The notes under the pieces were generated by a model. The model saw only the letters and a list, made by a program, of their open reading frames with translations. It did not search any database and was not told where the DNA came from. From Cryobacterium cheniae (GTDB lineage: Bacteria > Actinomycetota > Actinomycetes > Actinomycetales > Microbacteriaceae), in assembly GCF_004403395.1 (NCBI RefSeq), contig NZ_SOGN01000048.1, positions 43,301-107,300 of the forward strand: a stretch of DNA of 64,000 nt. The letters are read 5' to 3'. This document shows, piece after piece, positions 23,813 to 28,370 of this stretch. The stretch's first letter is position 1; every line of letters starts with the position of its first letter. A program made the position numbers and the translations under genes.

Positions 23813-24643
23813 ATGACAGACCTGCCCGGAACCGCCGCGAATTACTGCTACCGGCATCCGGGCAGGCAGAGCTTCATCCTCTGCCAGCGCTGCGGCCGCA
23901 CGATCTGCCCGGACTGCCAGACACAGGGCGCCGTTGGCGTGATCTGCCCCGAGTGCATGGCGGAGCAGCGCAAGAATGCCCCGCGCACCAAGCCGGCCGT
24001 CCTGACCCGGCTGACGCGCAGCTCTCACCCGGTGACGACGTCGATCGTCGTTCTCACGATGGCGGTGTACCTGCTGCAGTTCATCCTGGGCGACGGTCTC
24101 ACCAGCCTTCTCTGGTACGCGGGCGTCTACTCCTATCCCGGGAGCTTCGAGCCGTGGCGCATGCTGACGAGCGTGCTCGTGCACGGCTCCATCTTCCACG
24201 TGCTGCTGAACATGTACACGCTCTGGATCTTCGGGCAGATCCTGGAGGGCATGCTGGGCCGCGGCCGTTTCCTCACCCTCTACCTGCTGAGCGGTCTCGC
24301 CGGCTCCCTGGGCGTCTTGTTCCTGTCCGATCCGCAGGTCCCCGTCGTCGGCGCGTCCGGTGCCATCTTCGGCCTGATGGGCGCTTTCCTGGTCATTCAG
24401 CGACGTCTGGGAGGCAACGCGACCCAATTGCTGATCCTGGTCGGCATCAACCTGGTGATTGGATTCCTGCCCGGTCTGAACGTGGCCTGGCAGGCGCACG
24501 TGGGCGGTCTGATCGCCGGCGCGGTGATCGGGCTGATCTTCGTGCAAACCCGCAGCATCAAGCAGCAGCGGCTGCAAACAGTGCTGATCGCGGCCTTCGG
24601 AGCCGTTCTAGTGGTTCTCAGTGCGGCGAAGCTCCTGATCTAG
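23813..24643 (+). CDS. Rhomboid-family intramembrane serine protease with N-terminal zinc finger
   Basis: A 276-residue membrane protease that cuts substrates inside the lipid bilayer. The catalytic serine is S182 in GASGAIFG and the histidine is H229 in AWQAHVGG; HGSIFHVLLNMYTLW is the conserved HxxxN helix. About six membrane helices follow residue 70. The first 55 residues carry a B-box-like zinc-binding pattern (YCYRHP, CQRCGR, CPDC, CPECM). Its stop codon overlaps the stop of the convergent glycosyltransferase gene (shared CTAG). Confidence 0.93.
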   Translation: MTDLPGTAANYCYRHPGRQSFILCQRCGRTICPDCQTQGAVGVICPECMAEQRKNAPRTKPAVLTRLTRSSHPVTTSIVVLTMAVYLLQFILGDGLTSLLWYAGVYSYPGSFEPWRMLTSVLVHGSIFHVLLNMYTLWIFGQILEGMLGRGRFLTLYLLSGLAGSLGVLFLSDPQVPVVGASGAIFGLMGAFLVIQRRLGGNATQLLILVGINLVIGFLPGLNVAWQAHVGGLIAGAVIGLIFVQTRSIKQQRLQTVLIAAFGAVLVVLSAAKLLI

Positions 24644-25356
24644 GGAGCGAGAACCACCTGATCGCGCAGATAGCCGGCGAATCCCGCCGGAGTCCGCCCG
24701 GCCAGCCGGCCGGAAGTGAGCACGGGGATCAGTGCGGTGCGAACCTCGCTCACCCTGAGACCGCGCAAGGCCGAGACCAGCCGAACGTCCTCCTGCCCGT
24801 CGACGGGAGCGAATTCTCCCGCGTGAAGGTATCGGTCCGCACGAACTCCGAGGTTCGCGCCGTGAACATGCGTGTGCCCCTCGACCAGCCGGTGCTGGGC
24901 ATCCCACCGTTCCCGGACTCCGTCGGACAACCCGTCGTCGGGAACCACGGTTCCCAGCACGAGATCGACAGCGTTGCGGGCGAACCCGAGCTGCACGGAT
25001 AACCAGTTCGGCGGCACGGCGGAATCGGCATCCGTGGAAGCGATCCACGTCGCCGCGGTGAACCGGTCAGGCGTCGGCAGCAGGTGACGCACCCCGGCGC
25101 GGCGGGCAGCACCCACGGCGCCACCGTTCGTGCTGATGCTCGAGAACATCGGCCAGTGCGAGGCGACGCCGGCCGTGCCATCGCTGCACCGGTCGAGCAC
25201 GACCACGACGTCGATGACAGGCGACACCCGGCCGGCCACGCCGCCGACCTCCCCGATGGCCACGGCCAACGCAGACAGGCATCGGGGCAGCAGCTCCTCC
25301 TCGTTGCGGGCCGGGATGACGACGATGACCCTGTCAACCCCGCTGCGCCCGGTCAC
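24640..25356 (-). CDS. Family 2 glycosyltransferase
   Basis: A 238-residue GT-A-fold enzyme. Nucleotide-sugar motifs are VVIPARNEEELLPRCLSAL near the start, VVVLDRCSDGT, and the metal-binding STDADSAVPPNWL. There is no membrane helix, so it should be cytosolic or peripheral. It is the third gene of a minus-strand operon: its ATG overlaps the stop of the deacetylase-methyltransferase gene by four bases (ATGA). The acceptor and sugar are unknown; the partners suggest an amino-sugar product. Confidence 0.87.
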   Translation of the reverse strand: MTGRSGVDRVIVVIPARNEEELLPRCLSALAVAIGEVGGVAGRVSPVIDVVVVLDRCSDGTAGVASHWPMFSSISTNGGAVGAARRAGVRHLLPTPDRFTAATWIASTDADSAVPPNWLSVQLGFARNAVDLVLGTVVPDDGLSDGVRERWDAQHRLVEGHTHVHGANLGVRADRYLHAGEFAPVDGQEDVRLVSALRGLRVSEVRTALIPVLTSGRLAGRTPAGFAGYLRDQVVLAP

Positions 25357-26729
25357 GGCACCAGTCCTTCGCGTTGCGCGACAGAACGAGCCGGCGTTGC
25401 TTCGAACACCTCGAGCAGGAAGTCACGTTCCCGATGCTCCACCGTGCGCTCGAACCCGGCCAGCCGGCCGAGCTCTGCGTGCACCCGGTCGCCGGTCAAC
25501 GGATATTCCGGCACCGGATGCCTCCAGTGGCAGGCAACGATAACGCCGTCGGCAGTGAGACTGTCGCGGCATCGGCCGAGTACCTCCCGCAATTCCTCCG
25601 CCGAGAAGTAGTAACCGACCTCGGACAACACGATCAGGTCGAAGGAGCCCTCCGGCCATTCGGCCGGCAGGGTGCTTCGTTCGAAAGTGACGCCGGGGCG
25701 TTCGGCCAGACGGGCACGAGCCACCAGGAGCGGTTGCTCCGCGATGTCAACAGCGTGGACCGTATCGCAGGTGTCGGCCAGGTCGGACGTCAGCACACCG
25801 ATCGAGCAGCCCAACTCCAGCGCCGCCCGGAAACGTTGGCGCGGCAGTGCCGCCAGGGTCAGGATCCGTTTGCGCTCCTCGTACCATCGGGTCTCGAAAC
25901 CCCAGGGGTCCCGGGTTCCGGCGTAGAACTCCTCAAAGAAGTCACCGGCCAGGCTCGGTGTCAGCGCCGTGTCCGTCTCCGTGTCGATTTCGATGTAGGT
26001 CTCGTAGTCGCGTTCGAAGTGCGCACTGAAGCTCGCCTGGATGATCGGTTCGTCGCCGGGCAGTCCGGAGAGCGGCTGAATCTGGCTGCGGTGCAGGGCC
26101 ATGGCCTGGGCTTTGCGCCGACGGTCGTCGGGGGCCAGATCCAGGTTCCGCAACATGCCGTCGGGCCAGACCGAGTCCTCAGGGGTGGACCAGTGCCAGG
26201 CCCAGATCGGGAATTCGAAGAGGGTGACACTTCGGTCGCGGGCAGCGTCGCGGGCGGCCGCGGCCGCGGCCGCATGGTCCGGATGGCTATCGAGGCTCCA
26301 GGGGGAGACCAGCCAGGTTCCCGGACCACCGGGGCCGATCTCGTCGGAAATCGCGCGGGAGGCCTCCGCCAGACGTTCGGTGAGGGTTCCGTCAGGGAGG
26401 TCGAGCAGGCGCACCTGCCCCGCAGGCGCCAGGGCAGCTACGGCGGCCGTCACCTCGACCCGGCGCAGAGCCGCGAGCCGGGCAGGGTCGTGCGTGGTGG
26501 ACCCGGGGTGGGAGGCCTCACCATTGGTGAGAACCACAACCGTCACTGGAACGCCGGCCCGCCCGGCCCGGGCGATCAGCCCGCCGGCACCGAGGGTCTC
26601 GTCGTCGGGATGGGCGGCGACCACGACGAGCCGGCGCAACTCGTCGATGCGGAGAGCCTGAACGGGCTTACGCTGCGCGGCCCACACGGTCTCGGCCGTA
26701 CCGGTAGCTGTGTGGCTGAAACTCACCAT
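25353..26729 (-). CDS. Bifunctional PIG-L deacetylase / NodS-like SAM methyltransferase
   Basis: A 458-residue fusion. Residues about 32-215 are a zinc-dependent PIG-L/LmbE deacetylase with VVAAHPDDETLGAGG (H40, D42, D43) and the second metal pair in DSHPDH (H149, H152), the family of MshB, which removes acetyl from GlcNAc-inositol. Residues about 265-445 are a class I methyltransferase: DPWGFETRWYEERKR resembles the NodS N-methyltransferase start, and LELGCSIGVLTSDLA (304-318) is the SAM loop. Adjacent deacetylation and N-methylation of an amino sugar is a reasonable inference. It overlaps the upstream flavoprotein by 7 bases and the downstream GT2 by 4. Confidence 0.88.
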   Translation of the reverse strand: MVSFSHTATGTAETVWAAQRKPVQALRIDELRRLVVVAAHPDDETLGAGGLIARAGRAGVPVTVVVLTNGEASHPGSTTHDPARLAALRRVEVTAAVAALAPAGQVRLLDLPDGTLTERLAEASRAISDEIGPGGPGTWLVSPWSLDSHPDHAAAAAAARDAARDRSVTLFEFPIWAWHWSTPEDSVWPDGMLRNLDLAPDDRRRKAQAMALHRSQIQPLSGLPGDEPIIQASFSAHFERDYETYIEIDTETDTALTPSLAGDFFEEFYAGTRDPWGFETRWYEERKRILTLAALPRQRFRAALELGCSIGVLTSDLADTCDTVHAVDIAEQPLLVARARLAERPGVTFERSTLPAEWPEGSFDLIVLSEVGYYFSAEELREVLGRCRDSLTADGVIVACHWRHPVPEYPLTGDRVHAELGRLAGFERTVEHRERDFLLEVFEATPARSVAQREGLVP

Positions 26730-27799
26730 GGGGAGACGCCGGCGTCGCGGAGTCGACGGCCGAGCGCCGCGTCGTCCCGCTCGGCGTGGTGTTGGCGAAC
26801 GTACAGCTGCAGGTCGGAAACTCGCCCGGCATGCCGCGCGTCGAAGGCGAGCGGCGCGGGGCCGAGCGCGTGGCCCGTGCGGGTGAGCACCTCGTCGACC
26901 GTGCGCGCGACCTGACCTCGCACCCGAGCCGCGAGGAGTGCTCCCTGATCACCGACGGCGGTGCCGTCATCGATCGCCGCGGCGGCGGCAGCCAGGGAGG
27001 TCCCGGTCGCGGTCAGCGCAAGGTCGAGGGCGCCCAGGTGCGCGAGCGCGATCTGATCCGGCTCCCGCTCGAGCACTGCTTCCCAGACCCGCCTGGCCAG
27101 TCCGACGGCCCCGCCCCACCAACAGGCGGCGACGCCGATCCCACCCCAGGCGAAGCCGGGTCTGCGGAGGTACCAGCCGTCGTCCCCGACCGGCCGGGCC
27201 GTAATGCTGCGGAACTCGACCGGTCCGCTCGGTACGGAGGTGAGCCCACGGCTCACCCAGGTGTCCGTGCGTGCGGTGATCCCGGGGTCGGCCAAATCGA
27301 CCACGAACAACCGCCGTGTGGTGGCCGAGGTGTGCGCCGTGACGAGGGCGTGGCTGAGCGAACCTGCGAGCGAACACCAGGGTTTTGTGCCGTCGAGCCG
27401 CCAGAGTTCGGCGCCGGCCGGTCTCGCGTCGAGACGGGTCTCCGCGCCTTCGGCGGCGAAGACGCCCCAGCTCGCGTCCGGACTGCCGCCCGGGACGAGC
27501 CCGGTCGGATCCAGGGCGGCCTGGTCAAGGATCGAGAGCGCGTCCAGGTGCGCCTCGGCCACCCGAGCCGCCGTGAGGTCGGCGGCGGCCAGGGAAGCCA
27601 GGGTTTCAAACAGCCGGAGCGTCTGCCCCGACCCCGGCCGGGGAACGGAACCGCCGAGGGCGCGGGAAAGGGCCAGCGCCCGCCCGGCGTCTCCGTTCAC
27701 GGCGAAGGCGGCCGTCGCCGCCTGGCGCAGGCTGGATTTCGCCGTGCGTTTCTCCGGTACGGTCAGCCAGACCGGCTCCGAACTCTCGATTCGCGTCAA
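26723..27799 (-). CDS. Acyl-CoA dehydrogenase-like flavoprotein
   Basis: About 358 residues with acyl-CoA dehydrogenase architecture: helical N-domain (TLRLFETLASLAAADLTAARVAE), beta domain with DGTKPWCSLAGSLSHALVTA, and a C-terminal helical bundle with RVWEAVLEREPDQIALAHLG. The usual catalytic glutamate is not obvious. The frame is open to 28039 but overlaps dps on the same strand; TTG 27799, with AGGA seven bases upstream, is the first start after the dps stop, so the start is tentative. Some proteins of this fold are N-oxygenases of amino sugars, which would suit the neighbours. First gene of the operon with the PIG-L fusion and GT2. Confidence 0.75.
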   Translation of the reverse strand: MTRIESSEPVWLTVPEKRTAKSSLRQAATAAFAVNGDAGRALALSRALGGSVPRPGSGQTLRLFETLASLAAADLTAARVAEAHLDALSILDQAALDPTGLVPGGSPDASWGVFAAEGAETRLDARPAGAELWRLDGTKPWCSLAGSLSHALVTAHTSATTRRLFVVDLADPGITARTDTWVSRGLTSVPSGPVEFRSITARPVGDDGWYLRRPGFAWGGIGVAACWWGGAVGLARRVWEAVLEREPDQIALAHLGALDLALTATGTSLAAAAAAIDDGTAVGDQGALLAARVRGQVARTVDEVLTRTGHALGPAPLAFDARHAGRVSDLQLYVRQHHAERDDAALGRRLRDAGVSPW

Positions 27800-27875: not shown

Positions 27876-28370
27876 TCAAGCCTTACCGGCCGGCTTGGTC
27901 GGGGACTTGGACGTGGGCTTGCGGGGGGTGCGGTTCTCGGCGCTGACCATCCAGGCGTACTGTTCCAGCTTCTCGATGAAGCCGTGCAGGAGGTCGGCGC
28001 TCGTCGGGTCTTCCTCGTCGACCGCGTCGTGAACGGCACGGATGTTGTCGACGGTCGCGTTGAGGCGGGTGGTGACCAGGTCGACGGTCTCTGTGGTGTC
28101 GACCTCCCCGTCCGGGAACTTGGGCAGGTGGGTGGTCGCGGTCACGGTCTCGCTTCGGCCGTCCGGCAAGGCGTCGAGGGCACGCATCCGCTCCGCCAGC
28201 TCGTCGGAGAACAGCCGGGCGTCGTCGATGATCTCGTCGAGCTGCAGGTGCAGGTCTCGGAAGTTCTTGCCAACGACGCTCCAGTGCGCCTGCTTGCCCT
28301 GGACGTGCAGCTCGATCAGGTCGACGAGGACGGACTGCAGGTTGGAGCCCAGTTCTGCTGATGCCTTCAT
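27876..28370 (-). CDS. dps: Dps-family ferritin-like DNA-protection protein
   Basis: A 164-residue mini-ferritin that forms 12-mers, oxidises Fe(II) and protects DNA under starvation or peroxide. The intersubunit ferroxidase set has exactly the E. coli Dps spacing: H29, H41, D45, D56 and E60, in HWSVVGKNFRDLHLQLDEIIDD. The C-terminal tail is Lys/Pro/Ser-rich (RTPRKPTSKSPTKPAGKA), suited to DNA binding. ATG 28370 has AGAAGAGGCG upstream; an open frame to 28451 lacks such a site. A triple DnaA-box cluster lies about 150 bases upstream of the start. Confidence 0.95.
   Translation of the reverse strand: MKASAELGSNLQSVLVDLIELHVQGKQAHWSVVGKNFRDLHLQLDEIIDDARLFSDELAERMRALDALPDGRSETVTATTHLPKFPDGEVDTTETVDLVTTRLNATVDNIRAVHDAVDEEDPTSADLLHGFIEKLEQYAWMVSAENRTPRKPTSKSPTKPAGKA

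What the first reader, a model, noticed from the sequence alone, without database searches (positions are those of the whole stretch)
24640..27799. Three-gene operon: ACAD-like flavoprotein, PIG-L/NodS-like fusion and GT2 (candidate undescribed amino-sugar pathway)
Seen: three overlapping minus-strand genes. The middle protein has intact zinc-deacetylase motifs (AHPDDE, HPDH) and a methyltransferase whose DPWGFETRWYEERKR segment resembles NodS. The others are a GT2 and an acyl-CoA-dehydrogenase-like protein. Known: PIG-L enzymes deacetylate GlcNAc derivatives (MshB); NodS N-methylates a deacetylated GlcNAc; some ACAD-fold flavoproteins are amino-sugar N-oxygenases. Inference: a GT2 transfers an N-acetyl sugar, the fusion deacetylates and N-methylates it, and the flavoprotein oxidises the product. 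This would be a small analogue of Nod-factor or mycothiol chemistry. The link to dps just upstream may be oxidative-stress related.
Basis: partly seen in the sequence, partly recalled or inferred. Interest (0 to 1): 0.7.

Follow-up and report, generated by a model that had tools for sequence, protein, structure and literature searches.

The report
Widespread stress-linked amino-sugar tailoring operon
Many unrelated bacteria share a small gene cluster, often beside stress-protection genes, that probably builds an N-methylated amino sugar with enzymes related to those that make the nodulation signals of root-nodule bacteria, and no function for it was found in the papers searched.

Summary
In detail: three overlapping minus-strand genes (window 27799-24640) encode an ACAD-fold flavoprotein, a PIG-L deacetylase/NodS-like methyltransferase fusion and a GT2, 76 bp behind dps. 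The unit is widespread. In even draws of 149 genomes (own phylum) and 249 (Pseudomonadota), all 31 genomes with a strong operon-type methyltransferase match have the ACAD-like gene on the same strand within 1 kb (the two draw centres are among the 31). Similar clusters occur in Deinococcota and Cyanobacteriota.

The methyltransferase groups with NodS against 12 other class I methyltransferases. In 7 drawn genomes a NodB-like deacetylase replaces PIG-L, which supports an N-deacetylation step. The ACAD-like protein has Gln where dehydrogenases have their J-K-loop glutamate (101 of 101 rows) and resembles ACAD-fold monooxygenases and dehydrogenases alike. Catalase, trehalose, Dps or ferritin-like genes recur nearby in a minority of loci; in A. 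baumannii the operon falls 31-62-fold together with a catalase and otsAB in published data.

Best reading: a soluble, stress-linked pathway that deacetylates, N-methylates and probably oxidises an amino-sugar glycoside. N-oxygenation and the product are unproven.

The parts
27876..28370 (-). dps-type ferritin-like gene directly upstream, same strand, 76 bp before the ACAD-like start; possibly co-transcribed
   Evidence: PF00210 75 bits; same place and strand in 7 of 14 fetched relatives, and beside an ACAD-like gene without methyltransferase in L147; no T-tailed terminator pattern found between the genes
26723..27799 (-). ACAD-fold flavoprotein of a distinct subfamily, without the J-K-loop catalytic Glu of acyl-CoA dehydrogenases
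   Evidence: PF02770 31.2 bits, under cut-off; AlphaFold2 pLDDT 87, pTM 0.85; Foldseek TdsC, DszC, KijD3, MsuC mixed with dehydrogenases; Gln at the Glu column in 62 of 62 rows and 101 of 101 rows
25995..26729 (-). PIG-L type zinc N-deacetylase half of the fusion (Pfam core about 26627-26244)
   Evidence: PF02585 90 bits; nearest solved family diacetylchitobiose deacetylase, 80 bits; motif columns conserved in 31 aligned sequences
25356..25979 (-). NodS-like SAM-dependent methyltransferase half of the fusion, probably N-methylating (Pfam NodS core about 25916-25533)
   Evidence: PF05401 43 bits; NodS next solved relative after 4isc; one clade with NodS in a 44-row tree, 96/86
24640..25356 (-). 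small soluble GT2 glycosyltransferase (GT-A fold)
   Evidence: PF00535 44.5 bits; AlphaFold2 pLDDT 94; GT-A matches in Foldseek; strongest 19-residue hydropathy 1.51

Best explanation
A conserved cytosolic pathway with four activities makes a modified amino-sugar glycoside in connection with stress survival. Inferred route: the GT2 transfers an N-acetyl-hexosamine to a small soluble acceptor; the PIG-L half (in another lineage a NodB-like CE4 deacetylase) removes the acetyl group; the NodS-like half N-methylates the freed amine with SAM; the ACAD-fold flavoprotein, which lacks the usual acyl-CoA dehydrogenase base, oxidises the product or an intermediate, perhaps as a two-component monooxygenase fed by the ferredoxin-NAD reductase-like protein that accompanies it in one lineage. 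Shown here by computation: conserved linkage, family assignments, intact deacetylase motif, NodS kinship, missing J-K-loop Glu, recurrent stress neighbours. Inferred: substrates, order of steps, oxidation chemistry, protective role. Separate estimates: functional unit 0.97; deacetylation plus N-methylation of an amino sugar 0.7; flavoprotein not an acyl-CoA dehydrogenase 0.8 (lowered from 0.85 on re-checking, because the alternative helix-G site was only partly examined); specifically an amine N-oxygenase 0.35; stress role 0.7.
For: Linkage: 14 of 14 methyltransferase-positive genomes among 149 of the own phylum, window genome included, and 17 of 17 ACAD-positive genomes among 249 Pseudomonadota, centre genome included, have both genes within 1 kb on one strand; 63 of 80 ACAD-scan loci have all four parts. 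Named examples with four genes: Acinetobacter, Comamonas, Kitasatospora, Pandoraea, Sphingomonas, Legionella lytica, Sulfitobacter, Novosphingobium, Paracoccus. Deacetylation: intact PIG-L motif and a NodB-like CE4 enzyme in its place in 7 drawn genomes. N-methylation: NodS the nearest characterised family. Separate trifunctional GT/NodS-like/polysaccharide-deacetylase proteins combine the same activities. Flavoprotein: no Glu in columns 334-338 in 101 rows; DszC, TdsC, MsuC, KijD3, ORF36 and DnmZ among solved relatives; reductase-like gene beside it in one lineage. Stress: catalase in 13 of 91 loci; co-regulation with a catalase and otsAB in A. baumannii (PMC5660220).
Against: No product, substrate or phenotype is known. 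The ACAD-like protein also matches dehydrogenase-type chains (2dvl, butyryl-CoA dehydrogenase), and in helix G some divergent rows carry Glu (column 213, 12 of 101) or Asp (column 219, 8 of 101), so an alternative base is not excluded for them; the window protein has neither. The methyltransferase is far below the NodS equivalog cut-off (57.5 of 300). 17 of 80 scan loci lack at least one part (4 of these lack room). Partners can be missing: Deinococcus proteolyticus has the methyltransferase without adjacent ACAD or PIG-L, G188 has a second methyltransferase with a CE4 gene but no ACAD (L148), relative L159 has the fusion only, G041 and G154 have the ACAD without the methyltransferase, a Methylobacterium relative is ACAD only, and 3 of 17 Pseudomonadota loci show neither PIG-L nor the queried CE4 proteins. 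Six methyltransferase rows print stop codons inside the match, though my stop-to-stop scans found open frames in those stretches. Most loci show no catalase, and the A. baumannii data come from lpxC- or lpxA-altered mutants, not from a stress experiment.
Confidence: 0.57

Rival explanations
1. Cell-envelope decoration: the GT2 loads the amino sugar on a polyprenyl phosphate, the deacetylase and methyltransferase act on the lipid-linked sugar (as ArnC and ArnD do in the Ara4N pathway, recalled), and the sugar is then transferred to a surface polymer.
For: PcManGT, ArnC and dolichol-phosphate mannose synthase are the best sequence-profile relatives of the GT2; the replacement deacetylase is a CE4 enzyme, the type of ArnD (recalled); the trifunctional relatives sit among polysaccharide genes; Novosphingobium has extra glycosyltransferases.
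Against: No flippase or ArnT-like product name in the annotated operon loci read; no transmembrane-strength segment in the eight proteins examined; by fold, WrtF, AvpGT and TarP rank above ArnC.
Confidence: 0.2
2. Ordinary lipid or secondary metabolism: the ACAD-like enzyme is a dehydrogenase acting on an acyl chain, and the deacetylase removes an N-acyl group from a non-sugar or antibiotic-like substrate.
For: Annotation as acyl-CoA dehydrogenase; dehydrogenases among fold neighbours; PIG-L enzymes also act on glycopeptide pseudoaglycones (2x9l, 3dfi); a second, long acyl-CoA dehydrogenase lies near the Kitasatospora locus and an AMP-binding protein near the Methylobacterium ACAD-only locus.
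Against: Gln in place of the J-K-loop Glu in 101 of 101 rows; no N- or C-terminal ACAD Pfam domain in the window protein; no NRPS or PKS product names in the annotated operon loci read.
Confidence: 0.13
3. Genuine amino-sugar pathway, but the ACAD-like protein is a non-redox relic and the stress neighbours only reflect hitch-hiking in accessory islands and plasmids.
For: Many loci lie on plasmids; Dps and catalase are near only a minority of loci.
Against: His84, Phe216, Gly229, Arg294, Gly313 and Gln336 are invariant across 101 rows, unlike a relic; the ACAD-like gene is a constant partner in the even draws and sometimes stays when others are not found; co-expression with a catalase and otsAB in A. 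baumannii.
Confidence: 0.1

Closest known systems
Nod-factor core and NodS (nodB, nodC, nodS)
   Same: GT2 + N-deacetylase + NodS-type methyltransferase; methyltransferases in one clade; in one lineage the deacetylase is NodB-like
   Different: No NodA or NodIJ names in the annotated operon loci read; PIG-L instead of NodB in most; extra flavoprotein; stress neighbours and non-symbiotic hosts; scores far under the NodS cut-off
Trifunctional glycosyltransferase/SAM-methyltransferase/polysaccharide deacetylase (NCBI product name)
   Same: Same three activities in one protein, NodS-type domain
   Different: CE4 not PIG-L; no ACAD partner seen in the four loci looked at (two annotated; two by profile only); polysaccharide neighbours
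Mycothiol/bacillithiol GlcN-glycoside pathways (MshB, BshB)
   Same: GT plus PIG-L deacetylase making a GlcN glycoside
   Different: Low equivalog scores (MshB 29.6 of 224.35; BshB1 47.9 of 182.5); GT2 here, whereas MshA and BshA are GT4 (recalled); methyltransferase and flavoprotein added
ACAD-fold group D monooxygenases and nitrososynthases (DszC, MsuC, KijD3, ORF36, DnmZ)
   Same: Fold and distant sequence relation; no J-K-loop dehydrogenase Glu
   Different: No equivalog membership for the window protein; own set of invariant residues; substrate unknown

Membership tests
PIG-L (CE14) deacetylase | Pfam PF02585 over cut-off and zinc motif (A)HPDDE ... HPDH | tested here: met
   90 bits, cut-off 28.2; motif columns conserved in 31 aligned sequences, D42 and H152 in most
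MshB / BshB | NCBIfam equivalog cut-off | tested here: not met
   MshB 29.6 of 224.35; BshB1 47.9 of 182.5; BshB2 48.7 of 195.25
NodS (Pfam level) | PF05401 over cut-off | tested here: met
   43.4, cut-off 24
NodS (nodulation equivalog) | NF041650 cut-off and nodABC context | tested here: not met
   57.5 of 300; no nod gene names in the annotated operon loci read
NodS lineage | One clade with NodS against other class I methyltransferases | tested here: met
   22 operon, 6 NodS, 4 trifunctional rows on one side of a branch from 12 others, 96/86; 98/94 in a 38-row set. NodS inside or beside the operon rows unresolved: operon alone as a clade AU p 0.25 and 0.29; operon plus trifunctional without NodS AU p 0.09
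N-methyltransferase acting on an amino sugar | Methyl transfer to a sugar amine | not testable with these tools
   Needs an enzyme assay
Acyl-CoA dehydrogenase | Catalytic Glu in the J-K loop | tested here: not met
   Gln in 62 of 62 rows against 4 own-genome dehydrogenases and 101 of 101 rows; no Glu in columns 334-338 of any row
Acyl-CoA dehydrogenase | Alternative catalytic Glu in helix G (site recalled) | tested here: inconclusive
   No Glu in this stretch of the window protein or the 5 family rows printed; among 101 rows column 213 has Glu in 12 and column 219 Asp in 8; the exact site was not mapped
Acyl-CoA dehydrogenase fold | N-terminal helices, beta domain, C-terminal helical bundle | tested here: met
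   Model pLDDT 87; query TM-scores 0.57-0.77 to the 50 ACAD-fold chains listed
Group D monooxygenase / amino-sugar nitrososynthase | Closer to DszC/KijD3/ORF36 than to dehydrogenases; flavin reductase partner | tested here: inconclusive
   Best hits mixed; reductase-like gene in 7 of 15 drawn stretches and 2 of 91 loci
GT2 glycosyltransferase | PF00535 over cut-off and GT-A fold | tested here: met
   44.5, cut-off 23.3; model and Foldseek

The most novel reading that the evidence does not exclude
A previously undescribed class of bacterial stress metabolite, an N-methylated and N-oxygenated (hydroxylamine or nitrone) hexosamine glycoside, is made by this operon in at least four phyla, works beside catalase, trehalose and Dps, and its methyltransferase lineage is the source from which rhizobial NodS was recruited for Nod-factor signalling.
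Probability: 0.17. Interest if true: 0.87.

Novelty: new variant of a known kind. Interest (0 to 1): 0.62.

Why it matters
A gene set this constant across four phyla, repeatedly beside catalase, trehalose and Dps genes, points to a metabolite that many environmental and some clinical bacteria may make under stress and that I found no report of. Its chemistry looks like Nod-factor tailoring outside symbiosis, so it may show where NodS came from. It also gives a testable function to an ACAD-fold subfamily that databases annotate, probably wrongly, as acyl-CoA dehydrogenase.

Tried and rejected
Mycothiol-like pathway: rejected as membership, equivalog scores far under cut-off. Standard acyl-CoA dehydrogenase function: disfavoured by the missing J-K-loop Glu; the helix-G alternative is only partly checked. 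A specific GT2 subfamily: no assignment; the NCBIfam GT hits are far under cut-off and fold hits are generic. NodS nested inside the operon methyltransferases: seen in the tree, but operon monophyly is not rejected (AU p 0.25 with 44 rows, 0.29 with 38 rows), so not claimed as shown. Five own-genome methyltransferases (L183, L185, L193, L194, L196) were dropped before the tree because my motif search did not find their SAM motif, the window's own copy (L189) was skipped as a duplicate, and six rows were left out of the second tree. The 22 operon rows are my selection from those at hand.

Literature: ten searches, of which one search was about flavin monooxygenases only. Only PMC5660220 (passages) and PMC6240043 (one passage) were seen to name the gene set, as table rows or neighbours, without function. 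Opened and not seen to name it: PMC13232832 (outline, abstract, passages), PMC6181384, PMC10325922, PMC12742793, PMC4694148 (passages), PMC8092242 (outline, abstract, passages). Other papers: listings only. M. smegmatis MSMEG_1097 (a SigF-dependent GT2) could not be tied to this operon and is not used. A T-tailed terminator between dps and the ACAD gene was not found by pattern, which is weak evidence.
Full report
WHAT IS THERE. On the minus strand the window holds dps (28370-27876), then an ACAD-like gene (27799-26723, TTG start), a 458-aa fusion (26729-25353) and a GT2 gene (25356-24640), with overlapping stop and start codons at the last two junctions. Pfam gives PIG-L at 90 bits, several class I methyltransferase families plus NodS at 43 bits, GT2 at 44.5 bits, and for the ACAD-like protein only the middle ACAD domain at 31.2 bits, slightly under the cut-off. 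No NCBIfam model reaches its cut-off for any of the three; the best for the fusion is NodS, 57.5 bits of 300.

IS IT A UNIT? Of these 80, 63 have PIG-L, methyltransferase and GT on the same strand within 4 kb of the ACAD and 70 have at least two of the three; 11 of the 80 have less than 4 kb on one side. Even draws avoid the ranking bias. In 149 genomes of the window's phylum (window genome included) the ACAD family is in 16 and the methyltransferase in 14; all 14 lie within the 16 and all 14 are adjacent (gap under 0.9 kb, same strand). G041 and G154 have the ACAD without the methyltransferase at that threshold, and G188 has a second methyltransferase place without ACAD. In 249 Pseudomonadota (the centre G060 included) the ACAD is in 17 and all 17 have the methyltransferase within 1 kb on the same strand; 7 more genomes have weaker methyltransferase matches (E 1e-29 to 1e-38), six of them in frames of 880-1131 aa, the size of the trifunctional proteins, and short frames of about 200-240 aa in three. 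Gaps were read off the printed coordinates. Of the 17 Pseudomonadota loci, fetched, 14 show PIG-L and 13 a recognised GT (in L173 on the other strand); L172, L174 and L178 show neither PIG-L nor a match to the queried CE4 proteins.

Named examples with the four genes are Acinetobacter johnsonii, Comamonas endophytica, Kitasatospora, Pandoraea, Sphingomonas, Legionella lytica, Sulfitobacter, Novosphingobium and Paracoccus (GT in Kitasatospora and Pandoraea by profile). In Cupriavidus basilensis ACAD, methyltransferase and GT are together and a PIG-L lies beyond a catalase. Deinococcus radiophilus and Nostoc have ACAD, PIG-L and methyltransferase in a row with a GT on the other strand; D. wulumuqiensis has the three with a TnpB gene in between and no GT found; D. 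proteolyticus has the methyltransferase with a GT but no adjacent ACAD or PIG-L. The PIG-L/methyltransferase fusion is mainly a feature of the window's relatives: 27 loci have both halves in one open frame, 25 of them the window and its genome relatives, and 70 have separate frames.

THE DEACETYLASE AND METHYLTRANSFERASE. The closest solved relatives of 31 PIG-L sequences are diacetylchitobiose deacetylases (80 bits) and TT1542 (79), then BshB1 (56) and MshB (50). Of 15 stretches fetched from the own-phylum draw, 7 (L134-L138, L140, L142) have the order polysaccharide deacetylase, ACAD, methyltransferase, FAD oxidoreductase, GT with no PIG-L found; L139, L141, L144, L145 and L146 have PIG-L; L143 has neither; L147 has the ACAD with only a weak PIG-L match; L148 has methyltransferase and CE4 without ACAD. 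The CE4 protein was classified in L116 only, the same record as L138: PF01522, best NCBIfam model NodB, 113 bits of 240; the other six are its tblastn relatives. An unrelated enzyme family in the same place suggests that N-deacetylation of an N-acetyl sugar is the required step. For 40 operon methyltransferases, after the functionally unnamed 4isc (222 bits), NodS is the next solved relative (106 bits), then phosphoethanolamine N-methyltransferases (62 bits and less); O-methyltransferases follow at about 41 bits. On plasmids the annotated relatives beyond the operon are largely rhizobial nodS (60 of 150 records listed as a spread). In a 44-row tree, 22 operon, 6 NodS and 4 trifunctional sequences form one side of a branch against 12 other class I methyltransferases (96/86; 98/94 in a set of 38). 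NodS and the trifunctional proteins fall among the operon sequences, but operon monophyly is not rejected (AU p 0.25 and 0.29), nor is operon plus trifunctional without NodS (AU p 0.09). Trifunctional GT/NodS-like/CE4 proteins combine the same activities by another route.

THE FLAVOPROTEIN. The model is a complete ACAD fold. Solved relatives are a mixture: 5gj7/5z8t (putative ACAD, flavin-containing monooxygenase), TdsC, DszC and MsuC lead the profile search, KijD3, ORF36 and DnmZ are present, and so are dehydrogenases. Four dehydrogenases of the same genome have the Glu of their EGT motif in a column where all 62 family members of one alignment have Gln; in a wider set 101 of 101 rows have this Gln, and no row has Glu in the five columns 334-338. 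The alternative helix-G base (recalled) was only partly checked: the window protein and the five rows printed have no Glu there, but among the 101 rows column 213 has Glu in 12 and column 219 Asp in 8. The standard dehydrogenase mechanism is therefore unlikely for the window protein, not excluded for every divergent member. His84, Phe216, Gly229, Arg294, Gly313 and Gln336 are invariant in the 101 rows. A ferredoxin-NAD reductase-like gene (best NCBIfam models AndAa and HcaD, under cut-off, for L116 and L082) is part of the NodB-like architecture and lies beside L082. This fits, but does not prove, a two-component monooxygenase.

STRESS LINK. dps lies directly upstream on the same strand in 7 of 14 fetched relatives, and beside the ACAD-like gene of L147; within 91 other loci a Dps match was found in 3 (window included) and a ferritin-like one in 5. 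Catalase matches lie in 13 of 91 loci: seven mycobacterial, the others Antrihabitans, Actinospica, Kitasatospora, Acinetobacter, Cupriavidus and Sphingomonas. In the even draws it is 1 of 15 fetched stretches (L146) and 2 of 17 (L173, and L172 cut at the edge); L128, L130 and L155 are further cases. As a rough control, 60 drawn genomes hold 17 catalase matches in 14 genomes, about 0.1 per megabase by my sum of the listed sizes, or roughly 0.002 per 17-kb stretch; the control is not matched for genus, and the larger actinobacterial genomes in it hold more. otsA and otsB lie in or beside the operon in Comamonas, Acinetobacter, L167 and L169, otsB in Legionella lytica. In A. baumannii the four genes (ACICU_02432-02435, marked as one operon) fall 31-62-fold in two colistin-dependent mutants together with otsAB (12-50-fold) and a catalase with its operon partner (12-31-fold) (PMC5660220, passages of Table 2; that this catalase is KatE is my inference). 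An A. baumannii record carries the full set in order (L202). PMC6240043 (one passage) names the same kinds of genes as neighbours of blsA. The mutants were lipid A mutants, not stressed cells, so the link is correlative.

VERDICT. An apparently undescribed, widespread pathway for a modified amino-sugar glycoside with Nod-factor-type chemistry and a repurposed ACAD-fold flavoprotein, associated with stress genes. The eight proteins examined have no transmembrane-strength segment, which favours a soluble product over an envelope sugar; the envelope rival stays open because the GT2's best profile relatives are polyprenyl-phosphate-type transferases. That no function is in print rests on ten searches of an open-access library, so work in subscription journals may have been missed.

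Noticed in passing
L134-L138, L140, L142 (L138 taken as the same record as L116): Second architecture: NodB-like CE4 deacetylase - ACAD - NodS-like methyltransferase - ferredoxin-NAD reductase-like - GT, no PIG-L found.
   Followed up: yes
L126:5393-8473, L127:5378-8380, L180, L181: Trifunctional GT2 / NodS-like methyltransferase / polysaccharide deacetylase proteins of about 1000 aa (L180 and L181 judged by frame length and tree place) whose methyltransferase domain groups with NodS.
   Followed up: partly
L062, L076, L077, L083: ACAD-like gene alone, the other three parts not found within 4 kb (L077 lacks room); three of the four loci are mycobacterial.
   Followed up: partly
L204:3698-5947, L031:4104-6476: Deinococcus ACAD-like proteins of 750-790 aa carry about 400 extra N-terminal residues without a Pfam match at E 0.001.
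   Followed up: partly
L165:9808-10620: A second PIG-L-type gene after the operon.
   Followed up: no
L147:7105-8445: ACAD-like gene directly behind dps, matched in three pieces over most of the model (inserts), with no methyltransferase found; first called a remnant by me, but its frame is open.
   Followed up: partly
window 27880-27850, minus strand: GGAGC-TTCG-GCTCC hairpin just after the dps stop codon, without a T tail; might tune read-through into the operon (seen by eye).
   Followed up: no
L062:8995-9753, L062:7176-7772 and relatives: In 14 of 91 loci, all mycobacterial, an endonuclease/phosphatase-like gene and a nucleotidyltransferase-like gene (both named by eye) recur around the ACAD or the operon.
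   Followed up: partly
L114, L076, L078, L075, L101, L063, L085, L094; L141, L146: DNA topoisomerase IB genes recur within some kilobases of the operon (8 of 91 loci; 2 of 15 stretches).
   Followed up: no
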